The notes beneath the pieces are model-generated. The model was not told where the DNA came from. It did no database searches and saw only the letters and a program-made list of their open reading frames with translations. 43,074 nucleotides of DNA, taken from Candidatus Thalassarchaeaceae archaeon (GTDB lineage Archaea > Thermoplasmatota > Poseidoniia > Poseidoniales > Thalassarchaeaceae). The DNA is taken from NCBI GenBank assembly GCA_029942125.1, contig JAPYUB010000001.1:1-43074 (forward strand). The letters run 5' to 3'. The position numbers and the translations under genes are program-made. Below, in pieces: positions 1,590 through 16,378 of this stretch. Positions within the stretch are counted from its first letter, which is position 1, and each line of letters begins with the position of its first letter.

Positions 1590-1765
1590 ACCTTCTCGCC
1601 AGAAAGAAGCGCCTCAAGTCGTTCGATGGCCACACTTTGTCGACCCACATCGCGCCCCAGTCGTTCATAATCAGCCTGCTCAATCATGCGACGAATGGCA
1701 TCTCTGTCACGTAGCAACGTGTTGACGCGACGTTGAATTCGTCGGACCTCGTCAATGTCGACCAT
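1586..1765 (-). CDS. Small predicted coiled-coil protein, unknown
   Basis: This 59-residue ORF starts at the ATG at 1765; a TTG further out at 1813 would run into the upstream regulatory region of the protease gene. It is rich in Arg, Glu and Asp with heptad-like spacing of Ile, Leu and Val (DEVRRIQRRV, AIERLEALLSG), so one or two helices or a short coiled coil are likely. Its stop overlaps the 3' end of hjc by 4 bases, and it is divergent from the site-2 protease gene. I do not recognise a family. The composition and tight packing argue that it is real. Confidence 0.5.
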   Translation of the reverse strand: MVDIDEVRRIQRRVNTLLRDRDAIRRMIEQADYERLGRDVGRQSVAIERLEALLSGEKV

Positions 1766-1804
1766 GCTGCTGAGAGGGGGGGTGTCGTCTTGAGTTCTCT
1801 CCCG

Positions 1805-3334
1805 ATGCTTCAAGAAGAAGCGGGGATAGGCCCGGTCGTGAGCGATACACGGCGAGGGCGCGACAAGCGCGCACTCATCCTGATTTTCATCAGTGCGTTT
1901 CTAGCTGTGCAAGTGCATTGGGGATTTGCTGCTCTGTGTATATGGATTCTCATACTTGGACAACTCGAGCGACGAGGGGTCCTTGATCGATGGAATGCAT
2001 CTCGAGTGATGGGTGGACTGTTGATGCTGCGAACTAAGCGCGGCCAAGATACCATTGAGAAAGTAGCAACACCACGCAAATTCTGGCGCTGGTATGGCGA
2101 GATTTCATTGTGGACTTGTTCCATTGTCATGGTCTTCATCGTCCTATTTCTGTTGTTGTCGTTCTCCTTGGCCCTATTCAAAGGCGTTCCCAACAATGAT
2201 GCACCAGCAAGTCAACTAATTCCATTTCCTGGAATCAGTCCAATCATTCCATTCTGGTGGCCAGCCATCGCTTTCGTCGGTGCGCTGGTGATTCACGAAT
2301 TCGCGCATGCGCTTCAGGCGCGTGCCCACGGTATGCGCGTACGCTCAGTTGGTCTTCTTCTATTGGGTCCATTTCCAGCCGGTGCTTTTGTCGAACCTGA
2401 ATACGAAGAACTGACCAAGGCACCACGCAGAGAACGCGCACGATTGTTTGCTGCTGCACCTGCAACCAATCTCTATGCTGGATTCTTCACTTGGCTACTA
2501 ATCTGTCTGCTGGCGACCCAATTTGCTGTTATTGATCCCGGTGTTCACGCCAGTGGAATTGTGGAAGATTCTGCGGCGGCAGAAGCAGGGCTTGAGCCAT
2601 GGGAAATCATTACTCATTTCAACGGCACTCAAGTTTCTACCGCTACTGAAATGTCAGACCAATTGGATGTACATTCTGCGGGTGATACTGTGAATCTCAT
2701 CGTTCTCAGTCATCCTGATGCGGACGGAGTGCGAGGTGAACGTGTCATCAGTGTCACTCTCACGAGCAAATTGGCTTATCTTGAATCACAAGGTTTGACA
2801 GAAGAAGAGATTGAATTGTTCGATGTCGATGAGAAGAGTGCCTTTCTCGGTGTCTCAGGAATGGATGATGGATTGAGTGGCATCGATCGATTGGCCGGGC
2901 CGATGGCGTGGGAACAGGATGTGCCGTTCTACGTTGATGCATTGGGTGTAGCCATTCAGCCCATCGTCATCATTGATGCACCCATTCAACACGAAGGTCA
3001 GATTATGGATCCCCACGAGATAGATTACATCGAAGCCGATGGTTGGTTGGGAAGTCTCTTGGGAACCACCATTCTGATGGCGCTCATCACGCTTCTCTTC
3101 TGGTTCATTTGGTGGAATGTCGGATTGGGACTGGCGAATCTAATTCCAATCATTCCGTTTGACGGGGGGCATCTGATGAAGGATTTCCTCGGAGTTGTTG
3201 TCGGTGGAATTCATCGATTTTCCAAGAAATCGCATCCGCTCAAGACTGAAGCTATGGTTTCGAAGATTTCATCGTTCAGTAGCCTGTTCCTGTTCATGGG
3301 ACTGCTGATGATTATCATCGCCCAGCGCATCTGA
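1805..3334 (+). CDS. Site-2-protease-type membrane metalloprotease with PDZ domain (peptidase M50)
   Basis: Site-2 proteases cut transmembrane segments of regulators or membrane proteins. From the ATG at 1805 (509 residues), two N-terminal membrane helices are followed by one carrying the zinc motif HEFAH (about residues 164-168). A PDZ-like domain comes next (about 250-320; GIVEDSAAAEAGLEPWE and IITHFNG are its carboxylate-loop and substrate-strand region). The second zinc motif is NLIPIIPFDGGH in a late membrane helix, where the Asp is the third ligand. A longer reading from a TTG at 1733 would overlap the divergent small gene, so 1805 is preferred. Its stop is one base from the end of the convergent signal peptidase gene. 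The target is not visible here. Confidence 0.88.
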   Translation: MLQEEAGIGPVVSDTRRGRDKRALILIFISAFLAVQVHWGFAALCIWILILGQLERRGVLDRWNASRVMGGLLMLRTKRGQDTIEKVATPRKFWRWYGEISLWTCSIVMVFIVLFLLLSFSLALFKGVPNNDAPASQLIPFPGISPIIPFWWPAIAFVGALVIHEFAHALQARAHGMRVRSVGLLLLGPFPAGAFVEPEYEELTKAPRRERARLFAAAPATNLYAGFFTWLLICLLATQFAVIDPGVHASGIVEDSAAAEAGLEPWEIITHFNGTQVSTATEMSDQLDVHSAGDTVNLIVLSHPDADGVRGERVISVTLTSKLAYLESQGLTEEEIELFDVDEKSAFLGVSGMDDGLSGIDRLAGPMAWEQDVPFYVDALGVAIQPIVIIDAPIQHEGQIMDPHEIDYIEADGWLGSLLGTTILMALITLLFWFIWWNVGLGLANLIPIIPFDGGHLMKDFLGVVVGGIHRFSKKSHPLKTEAMVSKISSFSSLFLFMGLLMIIIAQRI

Positions 3335-5243: not shown

Positions 5244-8200
5244 ATGAAAAAAATTGCCATCTCCATCCTTGTAATTCTACTCTTTTCCACTGCATTGCCA
5301 TTGGCATCCGCAGTCACAGAAACTCAATTTTCCGATGGATCCTCGACCTTCACTCATGTCTTCACTACGGCTGGAGATGCGGCCACACAGGGTGTAACAC
5401 TGCCTTTTGGAGCTGAAGTGGGTGATGTTGAATTTGAAATTGAAGGTTCATCATCAACACAAAGTTGGTTCAATCGGACCAGCAATGCCGACTTCGGTGG
5501 ACAAGGAACGACCGGATCAAGTCAATGGGGATGGTCAATCAACCAGAATGGATGGAACTACGGTTATCGGCAAAATGTCAAGATTGACAATGGTCAACTG
5601 GAATTGCGCCCAACAGAGGATACCACCTATTGGTCGATGAGCAATACGAATCAGGCTGCATCATCCACTGGTGGCAGTATGAACACGACGGGGCAATACT
5701 TCTCAACCGCTGAAGCCGGTTACAACGGAATGAGTGATGTCAGCACAAAAAGTGTATCCGGTGGCACTTGGAATTACATGGGTCCAGTCGTCAAGCAAGG
5801 GGATGAGGTCCATGTTGTTCGATATTCTTCGATTGGTTCCTACGGCGGTTACCAATTGAGTGCAATCAATCGATACAATGCAACGACTGGTGTTTCCATT
5901 GGAACGGCGAGCATACAATACAACAACTGTTCTTCTAACAACGTATACTACATTACTGACGCAACAAGCGATGGTGATGGAACTGTTTGGATGACGTCCT
6001 TCTACACGAGTGGAACCCAAGGCGCGATATCAAAGTGGTCTGTAACTTACACAACCGGCTCTTCTGGTCAAGTTATTTCCACTTACAAATGTGAGAGGGC
6101 TTGGACGGTACTCGAAGTAGGTGGCATTTCCATCGATCCAATAACTGACAAAATGTATGTCGTACAACGGGTTCGAGTGAACAACCAATACCTCATCGAT
6201 TTGTGGGAAGTCAGTCGTAGTACTCCGAATATTGCTATACAAACTTGGAGCCTAGGAATTATTTCTCCCACTGGTATTCAAACGGGTCTCAATTCCTATA
6301 CCAGACCTGCTGGATTGGATGTTCAGATGCCCAGAATTTCGGTGAACGTATACTGTTACTATTACGCAAACCCCAACTACTGCGATGGGAATCGTGTGTC
6401 GTGGATGAACGTCTATCATCAGCGTTCCAACTGGCCTGAATTGCAAGGTGAATTCCCCAGTTCTTACGCAATCATGGGCATCGAGAATATCGATGGAGAA
6501 TTGGCGACAACCTGTATGTATGGGTCGGTTTCATCCTATTGCCCTAGTGCCAGCACAATGCGGAAAATCACAATGCGAGGGGGTGGTTCATCCGATTGGA
6601 TGGGTACTCCGGCATCAAACAATGCCACGATTACATCGAGTATGCAGACACTCGCTCGTTCGGTTAGCGAACTATCGATTGGAGTTGCGATTACATGGGA
6701 ACCAACGGGTACCTCGGTTGATTTCGAAGTAACCAATGATGGCGGAACCACCTGGAAGCGAGCCAATAGTGCGGGTCAAACAATTACATTCACAAATGCA
6801 GGCAACCAATTGGGTTGGCGGGCTTGGCTAAACGGAACTGCTTCTGCAGCACCACTCCTAGATACCGTGGGCCTCACCTATGCCGCTACCTTTGCATCGA
6901 GTGGACAATGGAGATCATACCGAGTTACATCTGGGTCATTCCCTGATGCTGCAATGGTTTGGTGGAATGCCTCAACACCTGGTGGAAGTGCACTGGATGT
7001 TTACTTCAGAGCATCATCCCAGTGTTCAAGTGGAACCAGAGTAAATATCCCAAGTTCGGGGTCGACTATGACTTTCTCTCAACTATCTGGAAGTTACTTG
7101 TCTCTCTGCATTGACTTAGATGCTGGAACTTCCAATCAGTATACGCCGACTCTATACGACATCAGTATCGCACTTTTCGAAAATGCTCCTCAAGATGTTA
7201 AAATTGACATATATGATACAGATTCGACCACCGCAAAAAATTGCCCCATCCCTGAATATGAATGGGAACATGAGGGTACGCTCTTGGGTACAACTACCGC
7301 ACAATCCTCAAGTGGCAATTCTGATTTGGAAGACGCCTTCAACTGCATCGTTCCACAGTCGGGTTCTGGAACTGAAGTTGTAGGAGTGAAGGTTCACTCA
7401 TCCACCCCAGGGAAAGTCAAAATCAAATCAATGCGAATTGAATACACGATGGTGACGGTCAATCTCGACATCAACTTCGATGAAAATATGGTTCTTCACG
7501 AACGAGTAAACCCCTACGAAATCGTCACGAGACACGTAATCGGTGATGAGGCGTTGAGTATCACCGATGCCGAGTTGACATTCCTCGCATCGCCGAATGC
7601 AGATGCACCTAAATTATCTTGGGCTCAAGATGGAACACTGGTTGATGATGACCCCGAGGATTGGATTGTCCCAGATCAGAGTGCGACATGGACGAATCTA
7701 TCCAACGGTATATTTGAGATACACTGGATGTTCCGTGTGACAGATGATTTCCCCGAGCAGAATAATGTCGGATGGAGAGTTTCTTGTACCGATGACAACG
7801 GATTCTCGCCGGGAACCCTTTCCACTGATACCTCTTCCATTGTGGTCAACCAGTCGTATGGACTGGGTTGGTTCACCATCCATGATGTAGAAGGGGAAGT
7901 AGTCAACGATAATGTCCAGAATGGTGATTGGATAGTTGCTGGTGAAACCATTCACTTTCAGGGCCAAGTCTGGTTCGTGGGAACACAAGATGCACCTCTC
8001 AACTCAGTATTTGACATCAGAATCGCCCGCAAGGACAGCCAGGGTGATTTCGTCTCTTCCACTTGGAAGGATAATTCAAATCCAAATGGAACGTTCTTCA
8101 TCTCAGTCGCTATTCCAGACATGGATATTCCCGAAGGCGTGACATTCGAAATACAGGCCTATAATCTGCGTGATCCGACCAAGGTCATGCCTACGGACGA

Positions 8201-10400
8201 TTCATGGAGGAGAACGTTGCGAATCGATGATTCAACCCCCGAAATCATCGATTCTTGGCCTGCTGATGGTGACTATGAAGCCAGTTCAGTCGACAAACAG
8301 GTCGTTGTAACCATCGAAGATGCAATTGGACATCCAGAAGAACTCACGCTCAATTATTGGGTCGAAGCTGACCATGACACCAACCGAAATGGGGAGGCGG
8401 ATGCTGATGAATATGTCATGCAAACAATGACCAATTTAACAGAGGAAGAAGAGAAGAACTTCTTTGGATATATCGATGATTCACGCAACCCAAACATGGC
8501 TAGAGTGTCCTATTTCGTCACTGGCAATGACCCTGCGGGAAATCTGCTATTAGGAAATGATGGACCAGGGTTTGCTTACGATTTATCCACCTATCTAACA
8601 CGACAAGACATGGCTTCAGTGTTTACTGGGTTGGTATGGCATGATCATGCCGATGGAACCGATGTGTTCAGCGGAACGGATCAATCAATCTCCATCGGTC
8701 TTGTCGATGCTAACGGCATCATCGATTTCGAATATATCTCAATCATCTACGACTTTGAGGGGCCTGATCCCGAAAGAGACCAACAGAAAATTTCCTACAA
8801 TGGACGAACCGACGTCTGGACTTCGGAAAGTGACTTCATCACCTTGCAGCCGAGCAGCTCTGCTGAAGTAACCACGAACGACACTGGTCTTCCATGGGTT
8901 CAGGTTACATTTGATTTCCAATTCTCCTGGGATTGGCCTGACGAGGACATTTCTGACCTCGCGCTTGAGTACAAAGAACTGGGTTCGCCAACACCCACTA
9001 GAATAGAGTTCATTGATCACACCTTCAGTGTCGAAAATGATCTGGTACTCGACGCATCGACCTATGTTGTCGAAGACGTGGCAGAACCTCGAACCGGCCC
9101 TCTTGATGATGCGACACCAGTAAGGCCGGACGATCGTCTACGGTGGTCGGGGCGAGTCGTGTATGAGAGCAGTAGTGTCCCTGCTCCAAATGATCTGGGC
9201 ATCACCGTCGAGGTCTTCGATGGGGTTCAGTATTGGTCCGATGGAAGTCTAACCGATAATGGCGCCTTCAGCATTGAAGTGCCACTTTCGGCAGCCACAA
9301 CATTGCAGAGTGCAGAAACTCGTACTTTCCTTACCGGCGTGCGTAACGTGCCTGGACGAGGCGAGGACATGACCCGCGATACTGTGGCGACAACTTTGCA
9401 ACTGCAGGTCGATCACACGCCACCTCGAGTTCACTATCGCCTTGCGCCTGTCGACGTCATCGACATCTCGGCCGCATCTGATTTGACATCGATTCCTGTT
9501 CGATTCTCCGGCTGGGAGGAATGTGTATTGCTTGAGGGTGATGACCGATGTGCCGCATTCAGCCAATCACCACAATGGGTGAATTGGGTTATGCGTGACG
9601 ACGCGCGAACTATTGCTGCAGGACAATCTCAACTGGCGATGCAATTGAACAACACAACCCTAGAATGGATTGGTGAAGTGGATTTGACCAGTGACGGCTT
9701 GGTCACCCCTCGAAGTGGATACAAAATTGGATTCTGGGTGACTGGTCACGATGCAGCAGGGAATGAATTCCCAATGGCGGGAAACACTGAGAGCGATCCG
9801 GTTAGGGAACATGAAGACCTAGATGGTGACCAAAACCTCGCATGGGTTCGACTTGGAGCGACTGTAGCAGAACTCATCGTCAAGAGCGTGACACTGGACC
9901 AAGACACCGTCAGCGAAGGAACGGAAATTGAAGTCGTTACCATCATTGCAAATACTGGTGGTGTGACTGAATCCTCTTTCTCTGTGCATTTCGTTACCGA
10001 TGAAGGTGTGATTGACACCGAGCGAATCACCGGTCTACCCAGTGGTGGTGAACATCGAATCACGACTACGTGGACCGCAAAAGAGGGGATTGATCGCATC
10101 ACTGTGATTGTCGATGCTGAAAATGAAGTCGTCGAGGTTGACGAAGAAGGCAATTCGATGTCCGCGGGAGTTTCTGTAGAGTATTCATGGGGCCTTGGAT
10201 GGGTCGATAGTTGGAGGCAGAATCCGCTCACTGTCATCGGCATATTATTCACATTGATTCTATTACCAATCATTGCCAGGATCACGTGGAAAACTTCGCT
10301 CTCAGGTTCAACCAGTCTCTATGATGAAGAACTCATGTATGAAGACGAAGATGATGATGAATGGGAAGATGATGACGACGATGATGACGGTTGGGAGTAA
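5244..10400 (+). CDS. Giant secreted/membrane-anchored surface protein with CARDB-like domain
   Basis: This 1718-residue protein starts with a clear signal peptide (MKKIAISILVILLFSTALPL, cleavage probably after ASA near residue 23). It ends with one membrane helix (about 1663-1685) and an acidic cytoplasmic tail of mostly Asp and Glu, so nearly all of it should be outside the cell. The extracellular part is rich in Ser, Thr, Asn, Gly and Trp and looks like a series of beta-sandwich modules. The best defined is a CARDB-like domain just before the anchor (about 1541-1645; IIANTGGVTESSF and VDAENEVVEVDEEGNS are typical). An EF-hand-like calcium loop, DTNRNGEADADE, lies near residue 1045, and many N-glycosylation sequons are present. 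The start has an upstream GGAG. Likely roles are envelope structure, adhesion or polymer binding; no catalytic motif was seen. Confidence 0.85.
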   Translation: MKKIAISILVILLFSTALPLASAVTETQFSDGSSTFTHVFTTAGDAATQGVTLPFGAEVGDVEFEIEGSSSTQSWFNRTSNADFGGQGTTGSSQWGWSINQNGWNYGYRQNVKIDNGQLELRPTEDTTYWSMSNTNQAASSTGGSMNTTGQYFSTAEAGYNGMSDVSTKSVSGGTWNYMGPVVKQGDEVHVVRYSSIGSYGGYQLSAINRYNATTGVSIGTASIQYNNCSSNNVYYITDATSDGDGTVWMTSFYTSGTQGAISKWSVTYTTGSSGQVISTYKCERAWTVLEVGGISIDPITDKMYVVQRVRVNNQYLIDLWEVSRSTPNIAIQTWSLGIISPTGIQTGLNSYTRPAGLDVQMPRISVNVYCYYYANPNYCDGNRVSWMNVYHQRSNWPELQGEFPSSYAIMGIENIDGELATTCMYGSVSSYCPSASTMRKITMRGGGSSDWMGTPASNNATITSSMQTLARSVSELSIGVAITWEPTGTSVDFEVTNDGGTTWKRANSAGQTITFTNAGNQLGWRAWLNGTASAAPLLDTVGLTYAATFASSGQWRSYRVTSGSFPDAAMVWWNASTPGGSALDVYFRASSQCSSGTRVNIPSSGSTMTFSQLSGSYLSLCIDLDAGTSNQYTPTLYDISIALFENAPQDVKIDIYDTDSTTAKNCPIPEYEWEHEGTLLGTTTAQSSSGNSDLEDAFNCIVPQSGSGTEVVGVKVHSSTPGKVKIKSMRIEYTMVTVNLDINFDENMVLHERVNPYEIVTRHVIGDEALSITDAELTFLASPNADAPKLSWAQDGTLVDDDPEDWIVPDQSATWTNLSNGIFEIHWMFRVTDDFPEQNNVGWRVSCTDDNGFSPGTLSTDTSSIVVNQSYGLGWFTIHDVEGEVVNDNVQNGDWIVAGETIHFQGQVWFVGTQDAPLNSVFDIRIARKDSQGDFVSSTWKDNSNPNGTFFISVAIPDMDIPEGVTFEIQAYNLRDPTKVMPTDDSWRRTLRIDDSTPEIIDSWPADGDYEASSVDKQVVVTIEDAIGHPEELTLNYWVEADHDTNRNGEADADEYVMQTMTNLTEEEEKNFFGYIDDSRNPNMARVSYFVTGNDPAGNLLLGNDGPGFAYDLSTYLTRQDMASVFTGLVWHDHADGTDVFSGTDQSISIGLVDANGIIDFEYISIIYDFEGPDPERDQQKISYNGRTDVWTSESDFITLQPSSSAEVTTNDTGLPWVQVTFDFQFSWDWPDEDISDLALEYKELGSPTPTRIEFIDHTFSVENDLVLDASTYVVEDVAEPRTGPLDDATPVRPDDRLRWSGRVVYESSSVPAPNDLGITVEVFDGVQYWSDGSLTDNGAFSIEVPLSAATTLQSAETRTFLTGVRNVPGRGEDMTRDTVATTLQLQVDHTPPRVHYRLAPVDVIDISAASDLTSIPVRFSGWEECVLLEGDDRCAAFSQSPQWVNWVMRDDARTIAAGQSQLAMQLNNTTLEWIGEVDLTSDGLVTPRSGYKIGFWVTGHDAAGNEFPMAGNTESDPVREHEDLDGDQNLAWVRLGATVAELIVKSVTLDQDTVSEGTEIEVVTIIANTGGVTESSFSVHFVTDEGVIDTERITGLPSGGEHRITTTWTAKEGIDRITVIVDAENEVVEVDEEGNSMSAGVSVEYSWGLGWVDSWRQNPLTVIGILFTLILLPIIARITWKTSLSGSTSLYDEELMYEDEDDDEWEDDDDDDDGWE

Positions 10401-11492: not shown

Positions 11493-12869
11493 TCACCCAA
11501 TCGGGTCGACCCCGTCTACTCCTTTCGGGGGAATGAAAGTATTCTGAAAATTCTTTTCTGCATCGACATCGATGATGGGTAGCACCTCACCTATGAGGTA
11601 AATGCTGCCGATACAAAGTATGGGTTGTGGAAGATCAGAATCCAACTCAATCGCTTTCTCTTTAGCTACTGAAATCGCATCTGAAATAGAACGAACGGCA
11701 ATAATCGATGCATCGGTTCCTTGCTCTTCAAGGATGCTTGCGAGTTCTTCGCAATCGACAGCAATTTTGCGACCATCAGGAGGTTGGGTCGCAATGACGT
11801 GACCAATTTGTCCTTCGACAATGAGTTCAACGAGGGGCTGTAGGAATATTCCAAGATCATTCTGAGTCGTACATCCAAGTACAATCACACCCGGCATTGG
11901 TGACATATCGCGTGTCTTCTGAAAACGAATTTGATCACAGGCTCTGGCCATGCCACTTGGATTGTGCGCACAATCGAGAAGGACTGGGATGCCATCGACA
12001 TCAAGCCACTGCATCCGACCTGGCCAATTTGTATGCCTCACCGCTAGTTCTACTTCGTCGTACGCATAGAAATTCCTCATGGCACCTAACGCCGATTTAG
12101 CCAACATCGCCGCTTCCTCTTGATATGGCATCCAGCCATCGTACCAAGTCTTGCTAGATAACGGCCTGAATGCTTTGACCGCTTCTGAGAATGGAAAGGC
12201 ATCACGACGATCGCCACGCCACCACCAAGCTTTGTCGTGGTCTCGAACAGCACGTTCAATCACCTTGCGCGCCGAACTGTCGTATGGCCAAACAGCAACG
12301 AAGGGGCGACCTTGACGAACGATGGCAACTTTCTCTTCAGCAATCTCGGAGAGCGTTTCTCCAAGGAATTCAGTATGTTCAAGTGAGATTTCGGTCAAGA
12401 TACAGCAATCGGCATCAACCAATCTTGTTGCATCCAATCGACCACCCAAACCAGTCTCAATCACAGCCCTCTCCACACCTTGATCACGGAAGGCAAGCAT
12501 GGCAACCAAGAATGTCGCCTCATAGAATGTTGGTAATATCTTGGGCACTATTTTGGAGGCCTCTTGAATCTGCTTCAAGCAGTCCTCAAACAGAACGTCT
12601 GCGATTGGAGAACCATCGATGCGAATACGCTCGTTAACCGAAATCAAATGGGGAGATGTGAACAGACCCGTGCACTTGCCTGAAAGGGTGAATGCATTGG
12701 CCATAATGGCACAACATGTACCCTTCCCGTTGCTTCCAGCAACATGTACGGCAGGGAAGGCTTGCTGCGGCATATCAAGGCGGTTGAGAAGAGTAGCAGT
12801 ATTGTCAAGCGAAGGATTGTATCCGGATGCTTTTAGCGATTCCAGCCACGACCAAACATCATCGTTCAT
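11493..12869 (-). CDS. folC: Folylpolyglutamate synthase / dihydrofolate synthase
   Basis: FolC adds glutamate to folates in an ATP-dependent, Mur-ligase-like reaction. The ATP loop HVAGSNGKGT, the adjoining LFTSPHL, VNERIRIDG and ETGLGGRLDATR segments, and the C-terminal LLDCAHNPSGM box are all typical. From the ATG at 12869 the protein is 458 residues, normal for the family. A GTG at 12884 is less likely because it overlaps GGAGGTG, the probable ribosome-binding site. The gene is divergent from the presenilin-like protease and is followed by dCMP deaminase. Folate polyglutamylation by a bacterial-type FolC is patchy in Archaea, so horizontal acquisition in this lineage is plausible. Substrate could be a modified folate. 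Confidence 0.85.
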   Translation of the reverse strand: MNDDVWSWLESLKASGYNPSLDNTATLLNRLDMPQQAFPAVHVAGSNGKGTCCAIMANAFTLSGKCTGLFTSPHLISVNERIRIDGSPIADVLFEDCLKQIQEASKIVPKILPTFYEATFLVAMLAFRDQGVERAVIETGLGGRLDATRLVDADCCILTEISLEHTEFLGETLSEIAEEKVAIVRQGRPFVAVWPYDSSARKVIERAVRDHDKAWWWRGDRRDAFPFSEAVKAFRPLSSKTWYDGWMPYQEEAAMLAKSALGAMRNFYAYDEVELAVRHTNWPGRMQWLDVDGIPVLLDCAHNPSGMARACDQIRFQKTRDMSPMPGVIVLGCTTQNDLGIFLQPLVELIVEGQIGHVIATQPPDGRKIAVDCEELASILEEQGTDASIIAVRSISDAISVAKEKAIELDSDLPQPILCIGSIYLIGEVLPIIDVDAEKNFQNTFIPPKGVDGVDPIG

Positions 12870-12932
12870 CCAACCGCCCCGCACCTCCGGTTAACGGTCG
12901 CCTTGAAATGGCCTTTGTGAGTCGCCTGAGAC

Positions 12933-15041
12933 ATGTCGGGTGACGGATTCGCCGCAAAGCGGCGTTCTGAGAAGGTCGCAGATACCCCCACTGAACAAAA
13001 TCAAAGGTCTTTGCTGCAGGAACTGAAAGGCCAGGCAGGTTCCATGGCTGGAATGGCAGGGATGTTCATCATCACCATCTGCCTAGCAATGAAAATCCAA
13101 CCGTTCTACGATCATGATGAATTGCGAGCCTTTGGTGCAGAGGGGGCAACCAAAGCTGGATTTATCCTGCTCGAACTTGTGTTCATTCTCATATTCACTG
13201 CCCTCATCATCTATCTAGCTAGGAAGAATATGCAACAATTCATCCGCTGGGGCGTCCTTGGTGTTCTTTGGATTGCCATGATGTACACACTTTTCCCGTT
13301 GGTTGCGATGATGCTTGTACCAGAGGCTCCATCCTTCACAGAGGATACTAGTGACACCTCTGAAGCATACATCATTTCAGTCGAAGAGGGGGGTGCGAAT
13401 TTCTTCTACATGGATGACCCCTATTCAGGCAATGGAACACTTCGATATGGGGCGAACTCAGGCGAAATAGAGTATTGGAATCATACCGTAGAACCCGAGA
13501 ATGAAAATTATACTTCAGGGATGGTCCAACTCTCACGAACTGCAGACGGAATCATCATCTGCGAAGGAACACAATGGGTTCTTCTCGATGCTGAAGATGG
13601 CAGTGTTCTCGATGACCACGGGAAGAACTGTGACCTCGGATTGAGGTACGAATTCACCACCAATGCCATGGATAAGACTTGTGATAATAAGGATACTCAA
13701 CAACATCAAGATTGGGCAATTAATGGTGATGAATTTGAACCGATACCGGTATTCAGGGATGGTGACGATCCCGGGTTCATCGACTGCAGTGGCTGGGAGC
13801 GGTTTTTCCCTACACCGTTTAATGGAGCAAAAATTCTCTTTGTGCAGGAGATTGGAACGGAGCATTTCCTCATTGTTTCAGAGCAATGGGCAGGAATGGT
13901 AGAATATCCTACTGAACCGCATGGTATGACGTTTGGAACTGAGGTAGTTACGACTTGGAACATGTCACTATCAGGTGGAGAAGTATTCACTGGTTCCACA
14001 TTTGGTGCCGCACCTGGATTGAATGTCACTGGACAGGATTCGTTGATTCTTGGGACTTCAGCAGGGCAAATCACAAGTTGGGAAATCAGTGATGATGGAA
14101 CTGTTCAAGAGGGAATTTCAATGCATCTCTCCGAACCTGTTCGCGGATTGTTGCTTGCGGATTGTTGCTCTGGTGGAAGCAATGATCTCTGGGTGATTGA
14201 AGGAGACAATCTACGCATCTTCATGGGCAGCAGTTTGGTAGAAATGCCACGAAGCCTTGAGATTGGAGGAGATGATTCTCAAATTCCAATGGCGCTCCAC
14301 AATGTCGAAAACAATGAAACCGTTCTTGATGATGGAATTCTCATGATGGAGCAAGATGGAGTTTGGTCATCGATGCGCTACACTGTCTATCAAGCGGACT
14401 ATTCCATGACGACCATTGTGGCCCTCGTCATCTCAATTGCTCTACTAATCATCTTGATTGTGCAACCGGAATGGTATGTCATCAACACAGTTGGCATCCT
14501 TGTGGGTGCGGGTACGATTACGATGCTGGGTGTCTCCTTCGTTCCTTGGATTATCATTCTCTTCATGGTACTCGCTGCAGCGTATGATGCTTGGGCGGTG
14601 TACAAGTCCAAACACATGCTTGAATTGGCAGATACAATGGTCAACTTGGAACTGCCAGTGATGCTTGTCGCTCCACAGAGGCCGATGAGAGGAAAACTAC
14701 GACCTGTTGATCCAAATAATCCAAGGCCAAAGAAAGGCTTGGATGAAACCATGTTAATGGGTTTGGGCGATGTCATCTTCCCTGGTCTATTGTGCATCTC
14801 TGCGATGTCGTGGTTGCCTGATGTTGAAGGTCCGATGGGGTGGTCAGCACCTGTATTGGTGGCCATTGGAACGATGATTGGCAGTTTGGTTGGTTATTGT
14901 GTACTGATGACGTACGTCGCACGAGGCAAGCCACAAGCAGGGCTTCCATTACTCAATGGTGGAGCCATACTTGGATACTTCATCTCTGCAGCCATCTTCA
15001 TTGGCAGTTCTGCCTTTGTTTTCGACGTCAGCCTGTTCTGA
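12933..15041 (+). CDS. Presenilin/SPP-type intramembrane aspartyl protease with large ectodomain
   Basis: The C-terminal membrane part carries the hallmarks of the presenilin/signal-peptide-peptidase family. AAAYDAWAVYKSKHM holds the first Asp (D552), MGLGDVIFPGL is the GxGD motif (D613), and QAGLPLLNGGAILGY (about 669-682) stands in the PAL position. Archaeal homologues are usually near 300 residues with nine helices; this one has 702. Three N-terminal helices (about 39-54, 73-96 and 105-129) are followed by roughly 355 residues (130-487) outside the membrane. These contain strand-turn repeats such as LILGTSAGQITSWEI, several N-glycosylation sequons and paired Cys, and look like a beta-propeller. 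The remaining helices follow. The ectodomain may select substrates. The gene starts 63 bases from divergent folC. Confidence 0.82.
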   Translation: MSGDGFAAKRRSEKVADTPTEQNQRSLLQELKGQAGSMAGMAGMFIITICLAMKIQPFYDHDELRAFGAEGATKAGFILLELVFILIFTALIIYLARKNMQQFIRWGVLGVLWIAMMYTLFPLVAMMLVPEAPSFTEDTSDTSEAYIISVEEGGANFFYMDDPYSGNGTLRYGANSGEIEYWNHTVEPENENYTSGMVQLSRTADGIIICEGTQWVLLDAEDGSVLDDHGKNCDLGLRYEFTTNAMDKTCDNKDTQQHQDWAINGDEFEPIPVFRDGDDPGFIDCSGWERFFPTPFNGAKILFVQEIGTEHFLIVSEQWAGMVEYPTEPHGMTFGTEVVTTWNMSLSGGEVFTGSTFGAAPGLNVTGQDSLILGTSAGQITSWEISDDGTVQEGISMHLSEPVRGLLLADCCSGGSNDLWVIEGDNLRIFMGSSLVEMPRSLEIGGDDSQIPMALHNVENNETVLDDGILMMEQDGVWSSMRYTVYQADYSMTTIVALVISIALLIILIVQPEWYVINTVGILVGAGTITMLGVSFVPWIIILFMVLAAAYDAWAVYKSKHMLELADTMVNLELPVMLVAPQRPMRGKLRPVDPNNPRPKKGLDETMLMGLGDVIFPGLLCISAMSWLPDVEGPMGWSAPVLVAIGTMIGSLVGYCVLMTYVARGKPQAGLPLLNGGAILGYFISAAIFIGSSAFVFDVSLF

Positions 15042-15094: not shown

Positions 15095-16378
15095 ATGCTG
15101 GACATTCGGATGTTCCGCGAACACGCTGATGTGATTCGCGCAGACCACGACAGACGTGGCCTTTCTCACGATAATATTGATGAGGTTATTCGACTGGATG
15201 AAGCGTGGCGAAAAGCCCGATATGATACCGACCAACTTCGCAGAAAACGCAACGAGGCAGCGCGTGGAATTGCGGCTGCCAAGAAGGCGGGGGATGATGC
15301 GGAATTCCAGAAAATCCGAGTGGAAGTTGACAGTATTGCTGAAGAGATTGAAGCATTGAGTGAAGTTGCTGACGAACACGAGACTGAACGCGATAGAATT
15401 CGCATGTCGATCCCAAACATACTTCATGCCGATGTACCAATCGGTGAGGATGAAGGAGGCAATACCCAACACAGCGTCCATGGTGAAAAACCGGCCTTCG
15501 ATTTTGAGCCGAAAACACACAACGATCTGATTGAGATGAATCGTTGGGTGGACCTACCAAGAGCAGCGAAGATTGCTGGAAGTCGCTTCTACTTCCTCAA
15601 GGGTGATCTCGCACGAATGGAGTTGGCATTGCAGCAATACGCTGTTGATTTCATCGCAGCGAGAGGGTATACATTCGTTCAACCTCCACTTATGATGAAT
15701 CGAGAAGCCTATGAAGGAGTCACCGATCTTGCAGACTTTGAATCCGTGATGTACAACATCCAACCCGATGGATATTACACAATCGCGACAAGTGAACATC
15801 CACTGACAGCGATGTTCATGGATGAGGTGATTGAACCGAGCTTACTTCCCATTAAGATAGTAGGTGTCTCTCCCTGTTTCCGACGTGAAGTCGGAGCGCA
15901 TGGCCAAGGGGACAAAGGCATATGGCGCGTTCATCAGTTCACCAAGATTGAACAGATCATCATCTCGCATCCAGACCATTCATGGGATGCACACGAAGAA
16001 TTGCTGACCAACTGTATCGATCTGTGGGATGGTCTCGGACTCCACTACGAGGTCGTCAACATCTGTACGGGTGACATGGGTACGGTTGCAGCGAAGAAGT
16101 ATGATCTCGAAGCATGGTTGCCGGGACGTGGGGAATACAAAGAAATCGTCTCTTGTTCGAATTGTACAGACTACCAAGCCAATCGATTGAGGATGCGATA
16201 CAGAACCACGGATGGTAATGCTACAGTACACACACTCAACTCAACTGCGGTCGCCACAAGTCGAGCGTTGGTGGCCATTATGGAGCAAAATCAGCTCGCA
16301 GATGGGCGGGTTCGAATCCCCAATGTCTTACAACCCTACATGGGTGGGCAGGAAATGTTGGAATCCTGCAATTGGTAA
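15095..16378 (+). CDS. serS: Seryl-tRNA synthetase
   Basis: SerRS charges tRNA-Ser with serine. The 427-residue protein has the standard N-terminal long antiparallel coiled coil that grips the tRNA (about 30-105), then the class II catalytic core. Motif 2 is VSPCFRREVGAHGQGDKGIW with HQFTKIEQ after it. Motif 3 lies at the C-terminus (TSRALVAIMEQ, followed by IPNVLQPYMGG). The TATSEHPL-type serine site is present as ATSEHPLTAM. This is the common bacterial/eukaryotic-type SerRS, not the rare methanogen type. GGAG lies 6 bases before the ATG within a hairpin. It converges with the biotin carrier gene, 9 bases away. Confidence 0.95.
   Translation: MLDIRMFREHADVIRADHDRRGLSHDNIDEVIRLDEAWRKARYDTDQLRRKRNEAARGIAAAKKAGDDAEFQKIRVEVDSIAEEIEALSEVADEHETERDRIRMSIPNILHADVPIGEDEGGNTQHSVHGEKPAFDFEPKTHNDLIEMNRWVDLPRAAKIAGSRFYFLKGDLARMELALQQYAVDFIAARGYTFVQPPLMMNREAYEGVTDLADFESVMYNIQPDGYYTIATSEHPLTAMFMDEVIEPSLLPIKIVGVSPCFRREVGAHGQGDKGIWRVHQFTKIEQIIISHPDHSWDAHEELLTNCIDLWDGLGLHYEVVNICTGDMGTVAAKKYDLEAWLPGRGEYKEIVSCSNCTDYQANRLRMRYRTTDGNATVHTLNSTAVATSRALVAIMEQNQLADGRVRIPNVLQPYMGGQEMLESCNW

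What the first reader, a model, noticed from the sequence alone, without database searches (positions are those of the whole stretch)
12933..15041. Presenilin-type intramembrane protease carrying a 355-residue ectodomain
YD, GxGD and PAL-position motifs are all present, yet the protein is more than twice the usual archaeal length. The extra part is inserted between the third and fourth helices and looks like a beta-propeller with glycosylation sites. A built-in extracytoplasmic sensor or substrate-selector on a presenilin fold would be an unusual architecture, with possible parallels to nicastrin, which is a separate subunit in gamma-secretase.
Basis: partly seen in the sequence, partly recalled or inferred. 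Interest (0 to 1): 0.65.

Follow-up and report, generated by a model that had tools for sequence, protein, structure and literature searches.

The report
Archaeal presenilin with built-in propeller ectodomain
A common group of uncultured ocean archaea carries a relative of the Alzheimer's-linked protease presenilin that has a whole propeller-shaped domain built into one of its outside loops, and one sister branch has cleanly lost that domain, which makes its role in choosing substrates directly testable.

Summary
ORF 12933-15041 (+), 702 aa, is an archaeal presenilin homologue (PSH, peptidase A22): NCBIfam NF041679 E 2.6e-61, and phmmer to the PSH crystal structure E 6e-36 with D552 and D613 aligned to D162 and D220. 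Residues ~133-486 are an extra domain inserted between TM3 and TM4. AlphaFold2 predicts a presenilin-like nine-helix core (Z 22 to PSH across the insert). The insert alone folds confidently (pLDDT 88, pTM 0.88) as a WD40-like, probably seven-bladed beta-propeller (Z ~18). Charge bias places it outside the cell, with presenilin-like topology.

It is not an artefact. Long forms occur at the same folC-PSH-serS locus throughout Poseidoniaceae and in four of eleven sampled Thalassarchaeaceae genera. The insert is under purifying selection. Short forms form one nested clade at the same locus, so the domain was lost there. Inserts in the same loop also occur in at least five other Thermoplasmatota families.

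Best explanation: a single-chain presenilin whose propeller gates or selects substrates by their ectodomains, working like nicastrin or the SPPL2 PA domain but unlike either in fold and position. Architecture is well supported; function is inferred. New variant of a known kind.

The parts
12933..15041 (+). PSH-propeller gene, 702 aa: archaeal presenilin homologue with an inserted ectodomain
13011..13316 (+). TM1-TM3 (residues 27-128), N-terminus cytoplasmic by charge bias
13329..14390 (+). Inserted extracytoplasmic beta-propeller (residues ~133-486), about 26-27 strands, probably seven blades
   Evidence: profile A3
14139..14231 (+). Most conserved propeller segment (residues 403-433, VRGLLLADCCSGGSNDLWVIEGDNLRIFMGS), with invariant D410; FG-GAP-like D-rich loop in relatives (xLxDxDxxGxxDLW)
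   Evidence: FG-GAP/BBS7 matches in relatives
14394..15017 (+). TM4-TM9 catalytic half (residues 488-695)
14583..14588 (+). YD motif in TM6, catalytic D552 (aligned with PSH D162)
   Evidence: invariant in 72 sequences
14760..14771 (+). GLGD motif in TM7, catalytic D613 (aligned with PSH D220)
14934..14963 (+). QAGLPLLNGG, PAL-position motif before TM9
11493..12884 (-). FolC-like Mur-ligase-family gene, conserved upstream neighbour of both long and short PSH forms
15095..16378 (+). serS, seryl-tRNA synthetase, conserved downstream neighbour

Best explanation
This is a genuine GxGD aspartyl intramembrane protease of the archaeal presenilin (PSH) family whose short extracytoplasmic TM3-TM4 loop has been replaced by a complete, probably seven-bladed beta-propeller. 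Shown by computation: family, catalytic residues, nine-helix core, propeller fold, extracytoplasmic side, conservation, in-place loss in one clade. Inferred: with presenilin-like topology (N-in, TM6-TM7 loop in) the protease would cleave type I membrane proteins or their shed stubs. The propeller, tethered to the outer ends of TM3 and TM4 next to the substrate-binding helices, would act in cis as a substrate selector, admitting or recruiting substrates by the size or surface of their ectodomains. This is the job nicastrin does as a separate subunit and the PA domain does in SPPL2. Losing the propeller would leave an active but differently selective protease, as in the short-form clade.
For: PSH family and catalytic residues. 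Fold of both parts: full model pLDDT 77.8, Z 22 to PSH over 238 residues spanning the insert, insert Z 16-18.5 to WD40 propellers; insert alone pLDDT 87.9, pTM 0.88, top Z 18.1. Side of membrane: K+R is 3.8% and D+E 17.1% of the insert over 72 relatives, and K/R-rich loops (TM2-3 34%, TM6-7 16%, TM8-9 22%) alternate with K/R-free ones (TM5-6 and TM7-8, 0%); 68 of 72 inserts have an even Cys count and C233 is invariant. Conservation: the insert profile matches 78 of 146 genomes, always inside the PSH gene, sometimes as two fragments at contig ends. Constraint: insert dN/dS about 0.13-0.18 where dS is measurable. Synteny: folC-PSH-serS in long and short forms. Short forms keep all core motifs, so catalysis need not depend on the propeller. 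Function by analogy: nicastrin hinders substrates with long ectodomains (PMC7248309); SPPL2 PA domains affect substrate discrimination (PMC12043953).
Against: No substrate is known and nothing was assayed. The relative placement of propeller and membrane core is uncertain (full-length pTM 0.67; no inter-domain error available here). A clean loss in a viable clade shows the propeller is dispensable for whatever the core does. The insert evolves faster than the core (mean relative entropy 1.48 vs 2.89 bits), so no strongly conserved binding surface is evident from sequence alone.
Confidence: 0.5

Rival explanations
1. The propeller is a ligand or stress sensor. Binding of a ligand or misfolded surface protein outside the cell would be transmitted through TM3/TM4 to switch the protease on, rather than sorting substrates sterically.
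For: Propellers often bind ligands or peptides (general knowledge). The domain is directly continuous with TM3 and TM4, and TM3 lines the substrate/inhibitor pocket in PS1 (PMC7248309).
Against: No ligand-binding motif was identified. Core motifs are the same in short forms, so no propeller-dependent switch is apparent in the core.
Confidence: 0.25
2. The propeller is mainly an anchoring or assembly scaffold that docks the protease to a surface structure, a sheddase or a quality-control complex, with no direct role in substrate choice.
For: Closest folds are protein-protein interaction propellers (WD40, BBS, DDB1, BamB). The surface evolves fast.
Against: The only consistently adjacent genes are folC and serS, which are housekeeping genes and are also next to the short form. 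Archaellin genes do not track the propeller.
Confidence: 0.15
3. The insert is a neutral domain that hitch-hikes in a permissive loop and has no function of its own.
For: It was lost cleanly in one clade, and sequence identity between distant inserts is low.
Against: dN/dS well below 1, invariant W182, C233, G378 and D410, and retention across most of an order.
Confidence: 0.05
4. Assembly or gene-calling artefact (a chimera of a presenilin and a propeller gene).
For: The genome is a fragmented assembly (205 contigs).
Against: Same uninterrupted ORF with the same neighbours in dozens of assemblies from different studies, including a single-contig genome (G036).
Confidence: 0.01

Closest known systems
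Archaeal presenilin homologue PSH (NF041679; Methanoculleus MCMJR1, PDB 4hyc/4hyg/4y6k)
   Same: YD, GxGD and QAGLP motifs, nine TM helices, superposable core (Z 22, 2.9 A over 238 residues)
   Different: PSH is ~300 aa with a short TM3-TM4 loop; here that loop holds a ~354-residue propeller
gamma-Secretase (presenilin + nicastrin)
   Same: Presenilin-type core with presenilin-like predicted topology and a large extracytoplasmic domain attached to it
   Different: Nicastrin is a separate subunit with its own TM and another fold; here the ectodomain is covalently inserted between TM3 and TM4 and is a propeller. APH-1 and PEN-2 counterparts were not searched for.
SPPL2a/b/c with N-terminal PA domain
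   Same: Single-chain GxGD protease with a fused extracytoplasmic domain, shown to affect substrate discrimination (PMC12043953)
   Different: PA domain lies before TM1 and SPP/SPPL topology is opposite; here the ectodomain is an internal propeller and topology is presenilin-like
WD40 / FG-GAP / BBS7-type beta-propellers
   Same: Predicted fold (Z ~18), FG-GAP-like D-rich loop, sub-threshold Pfam matches in relatives
   Different: The window insert itself matches no Pfam propeller model; sequence identity to structural matches is about 7-10%

Membership tests
Archaeal presenilin homologue PSH (NF041679; PF06550; peptidase family A22) | Sequence score over the curated family cut-offs | tested here: met
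   NF041679 207.6 bits (cut-off 125); PF06550 155.9 (23.9) and PF04258 41 (23.3)
Archaeal presenilin homologue PSH (NF041679; PF06550; peptidase family A22) | YD and GxGD catalytic motifs in adjacent TM helices, plus PAL-position motif | tested here: met
   Y551-D552, G610-D613 and Q668-G677 align with PSH; Y551, D552, D613 and Q668-P672 invariant in 72 sequences
Archaeal presenilin homologue PSH (NF041679; PF06550; peptidase family A22) | Nine-TM presenilin fold | tested here: met
   AF2 model superposes on 4y6k/4hyg/4hyc, Z 20.6-22
Archaeal presenilin homologue PSH (NF041679; PF06550; peptidase family A22) | Proteolytic activity within a membrane span | not testable with these tools
   Needs a biochemical assay
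gamma-Secretase / nicastrin | Ectodomain supplied by nicastrin as a separate single-pass subunit | tested here: not met
   The ectodomain is in the same ORF between TM3 and TM4, and its predicted fold is a beta-propeller
gamma-Secretase / nicastrin | APH-1 and PEN-2 subunits | not tested
   No search was made for archaeal counterparts
SPPL2 (PA-domain SPP-like protease) | PA domain N-terminal to TM1 | tested here: not met
   Only 26 residues precede the first TM helix, and Pfam finds no PA domain
SPPL2 (PA-domain SPP-like protease) | SPP-type (inverted) topology | tested here: not met
   Charge bias over 72 relatives predicts N-in and TM6-TM7 loop in; a prediction, not an experiment
Seven-bladed WD40-like beta-propeller (fold) | Toroidal fold of four-stranded blades | tested here: met
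   AF2 insert model pLDDT 87.9, pTM 0.88, 26 strands; Z 18.1 over 276 residues to a RACK1-position ribosomal chain. Blade number is inferred from strand count and best matches.
FG-GAP / BBS7 propeller sequence families | Score over the Pfam gathering cut-off | tested here: not met
   Window insert has no propeller model match; relatives match below cut-off (BBS7 E 2.1e-5 in L151, 8.2e-5 best in A3)

The most novel reading that the evidence does not exclude
A single polypeptide does what gamma-secretase needs presenilin plus nicastrin to do: the propeller is a cis-acting ectodomain gate on an archaeal presenilin. Ectodomain gating of presenilin-type proteases would then have evolved independently outside eukaryotes, with an unrelated fold at a different insertion point, and been dropped again in one clade.
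Probability: 0.4. Interest if true: 0.8.

Novelty: new variant of a known kind. Interest (0 to 1): 0.6.

Why it matters
Archaeal PSH is a standard structural model for presenilin but lacks anything like nicastrin, so how an ectodomain controls a presenilin core cannot be studied in it. Here nature supplies one gene at one locus, with and without a fused ectodomain, in sister clades. That makes the gating question directly testable in a single-chain enzyme. It also shows that SPPL2 PA domains and nicastrin are not the only ways to put an ectodomain on a GxGD protease. I found no paper describing this: searches combining presenilin with Marine Group II, or intramembrane aspartyl protease with beta-propeller, gave nothing, and the few hits for presenilin with Thermoplasmatota or with propeller domain and archaea look unrelated from their titles and abstracts (open-access library only).

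Tried and rejected
Artefact or chimera: rejected. Split gene, with the propeller encoded elsewhere in short-form genomes: profile A3 gave no match at E <= 0.001 in 68 of 146 class genomes, so no stand-alone relative is seen in the short-form genomes. Link to the archaellum, prompted by a statement in PMC6461757 that all Poseidoniaceae and half of Thalassarchaeaceae genera have the archaellum operon: archaellin genes occur in short-form genera g5 and g6 and gave no match in the listed long-form g4 genomes, so the two do not track. Viral origin: no relative in viral contigs. Sequence match of the insert profile to solved structures: only chance-level hits. Profile-profile comparison of inserts from different Thermoplasmatota classes: the tool failed and my local hhalign run failed on input format. 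The HMM of the Poseidoniales insert gives only a weak match, near the C-terminal end of both, to the f8 insert (E 0.02 for 100,000 sequences), so common descent of the inserts across classes is unproven. Number of origins: deep nodes of the core tree are weakly supported (UFBoot 61-76), so one gain with losses and several gains both remain open. Phyla outside Thermoplasmatota were not surveyed for inserts.

Full report
What was checked. The ORF at 12933-15041 (+) encodes 702 residues. It passes the curated thresholds for archaeal presenilin homologues by a wide margin. Its only hit among solved-structure sequences is PSH from Methanoculleus marisnigri (4hyc, E 6e-36; 4hyd, 4hyg and 4y6k have the same sequence). 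In that alignment D552 falls on PSH D162 and D613 on D220. The gene is the only family match in its genome.

Anatomy. Hydropathy and the AF2 model (72 aligned sequences, pLDDT 77.8, pTM 0.67) give nine membrane helices: 27-59, 75-97, 101-128, then 491-510, 514-532, 538-558, 612-627, 639-663 and 670-689. Between the third and fourth lie residues ~133-486, almost entirely beta. The membrane part superposes on PSH with Z 22 (2.9 A, 238 residues, model range 36-687), that is, across the insert. Folded alone with 42 relatives, the insert gives pLDDT 87.9 and pTM 0.88. It matches WD40-type propellers at Z about 18. The number of blades, seven, is inferred from 26-27 strands and from the best matches. 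Sequence evidence agrees weakly but in the right direction: 7 of 42 inserts match the BBS7 propeller model and 7 of 42 match FG-GAP_3, with none claimed here over its cut-off. The insert of a relative from another class matches BBS7 at E 2.1e-5 and FG-GAP_3 at 8.5e-4.

Side of the membrane. Over 72 relatives the insert has 3.8% K+R and 17.1% D+E. The short loops alternate: the TM2-3, TM6-7 and TM8-9 loops are K/R-rich, while the TM5-6 and TM7-8 loops have none. By the positive-inside rule the N-terminus and the TM6-7 loop are cytoplasmic and the insert is outside, the topology of presenilin rather than SPP. 68 of 72 inserts have an even number of cysteines. Sequons average 5.6 per insert against 3.1 in shuffles, which fits an exported domain but does not prove glycosylation.

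Distribution. A survey of 59 relatives and a family survey of 146 class genomes show the long form in the sampled genera of family f2 and in genera g1, g2, g4 and g7 of the window's family f1. The named loci of these relatives are titled Poseidoniaceae, Thalassarchaeaceae or Poseidoniales; from these titles the window's family f1 is taken to be Thalassarchaeaceae and f2 Poseidoniaceae (inference). The seven other f1 genera, and group f3 of the same class (probably MGIII, inference), have a short form with a loop of 5-11 residues, except g8 with 51. The insert profile matches 78 of 146 genomes, always within the PSH gene.

Gain and loss. In a maximum-likelihood tree of the membrane part, the eleven short f1 forms make one clade (UFBoot 100) nested within long forms (97, 99 and 100 at successive nodes), though its immediate sister is uncertain (56). 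folC-PSH-serS order is shared by long and short forms. So the short form in this family is the same gene after loss of the propeller. Long-form genera have larger assemblies (genus means 1.65-2.07 Mb against 1.31-1.50 Mb, one-sided Mann-Whitney p 0.005; rounded sizes of incomplete assemblies, phylogeny not corrected), so the loss may belong to general streamlining. The phylum survey led to inserts of 226-366 residues at the same loop in five further families (f8, f11, f18, f26, f33). In the class of G174 the family profile matches all three genomes in the split manner expected of an insert. In the class of G223, 10 of 12 genomes matched, and those whose ORFs were read carry a large insert or its 3' part. 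Whether these inserts share one origin with the Poseidoniales insert is not settled.

Constraint. Against close relatives with measurable dS, insert dN/dS is 0.13-0.18 and core dN/dS is 0.05-0.08. The invariant insert residues over the 72-sequence set are W182, C233, G378 and D410. D410 lies in a D-rich loop that in many relatives reads xLxDxDxxGxxDLW, an FG-GAP-like pattern.

How it probably works. In gamma-secretase the nicastrin ectodomain hinders substrates with long ectodomains, and PS1 TM2, TM3, TM5, TM6 and TM7 form the pocket that inhibitor and substrates occupy (PMC7248309). In SPPL2 the fused PA domain affects substrate discrimination (PMC12043953). A propeller rooted in the outer ends of TM3 and TM4 is placed where it could do the same in cis. 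Steps shown: protease family, core fold, propeller fold, side of membrane, conservation, loss. Steps inferred: activity, type I substrates, gating. The sensor and scaffold rivals are not excluded.

Verdict. Membership in the PSH family is met on every feature that could be tested; membership in gamma-secretase or SPPL2 is not, but the likely mode of action resembles theirs. It is a new variant of a known kind, with a natural deletion that makes the function testable.

Noticed in passing
1733-3334 (+): A site-2-protease-type M50 intramembrane metalloprotease with PDZ domain lies about 9.6 kb upstream of the presenilin gene; it is the genome's only M50 match. Two intramembrane proteases in one window.
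   Followed up: partly
5244-10400 (+): A 1718-aa protein with an N-terminal hydrophobic signal-like segment, a CARDB domain, one C-terminal TM and an acidic tail: a probable type I membrane protein, conserved near the presenilin gene in many relatives. It has the topology a presenilin-type protease would act on, but nothing links them beyond proximity.
   Followed up: partly
L040 and L043 (genus g8): Short-form presenilins of this genus carry about 51 residues in the TM3-TM4 loop, with hydrophobic segments, at the propeller insertion point: a different insertion in the same loop.
   Followed up: partly
L150-L159, L171, L173, L174: Other Thermoplasmatota families have their own large TM3-TM4 inserts (226-366 aa where complete), very divergent in sequence, one with FG-GAP/BBS7 similarity.
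   Followed up: partly
L060-L069: Presenilins of group f3 (probably MGIII) are short, show no folC or serS in the short flanks held, and group with other short Thermoplasmatota forms rather than with Poseidoniales (UFBoot 94), which suggests a different history of the gene in that group.
   Followed up: partly
14163-14168 (residues 411-412, CC): A vicinal Cys pair in the propeller occurs in 20 of 72 inserts, where most other relatives have the D-rich FG-GAP-like loop.
   Followed up: no
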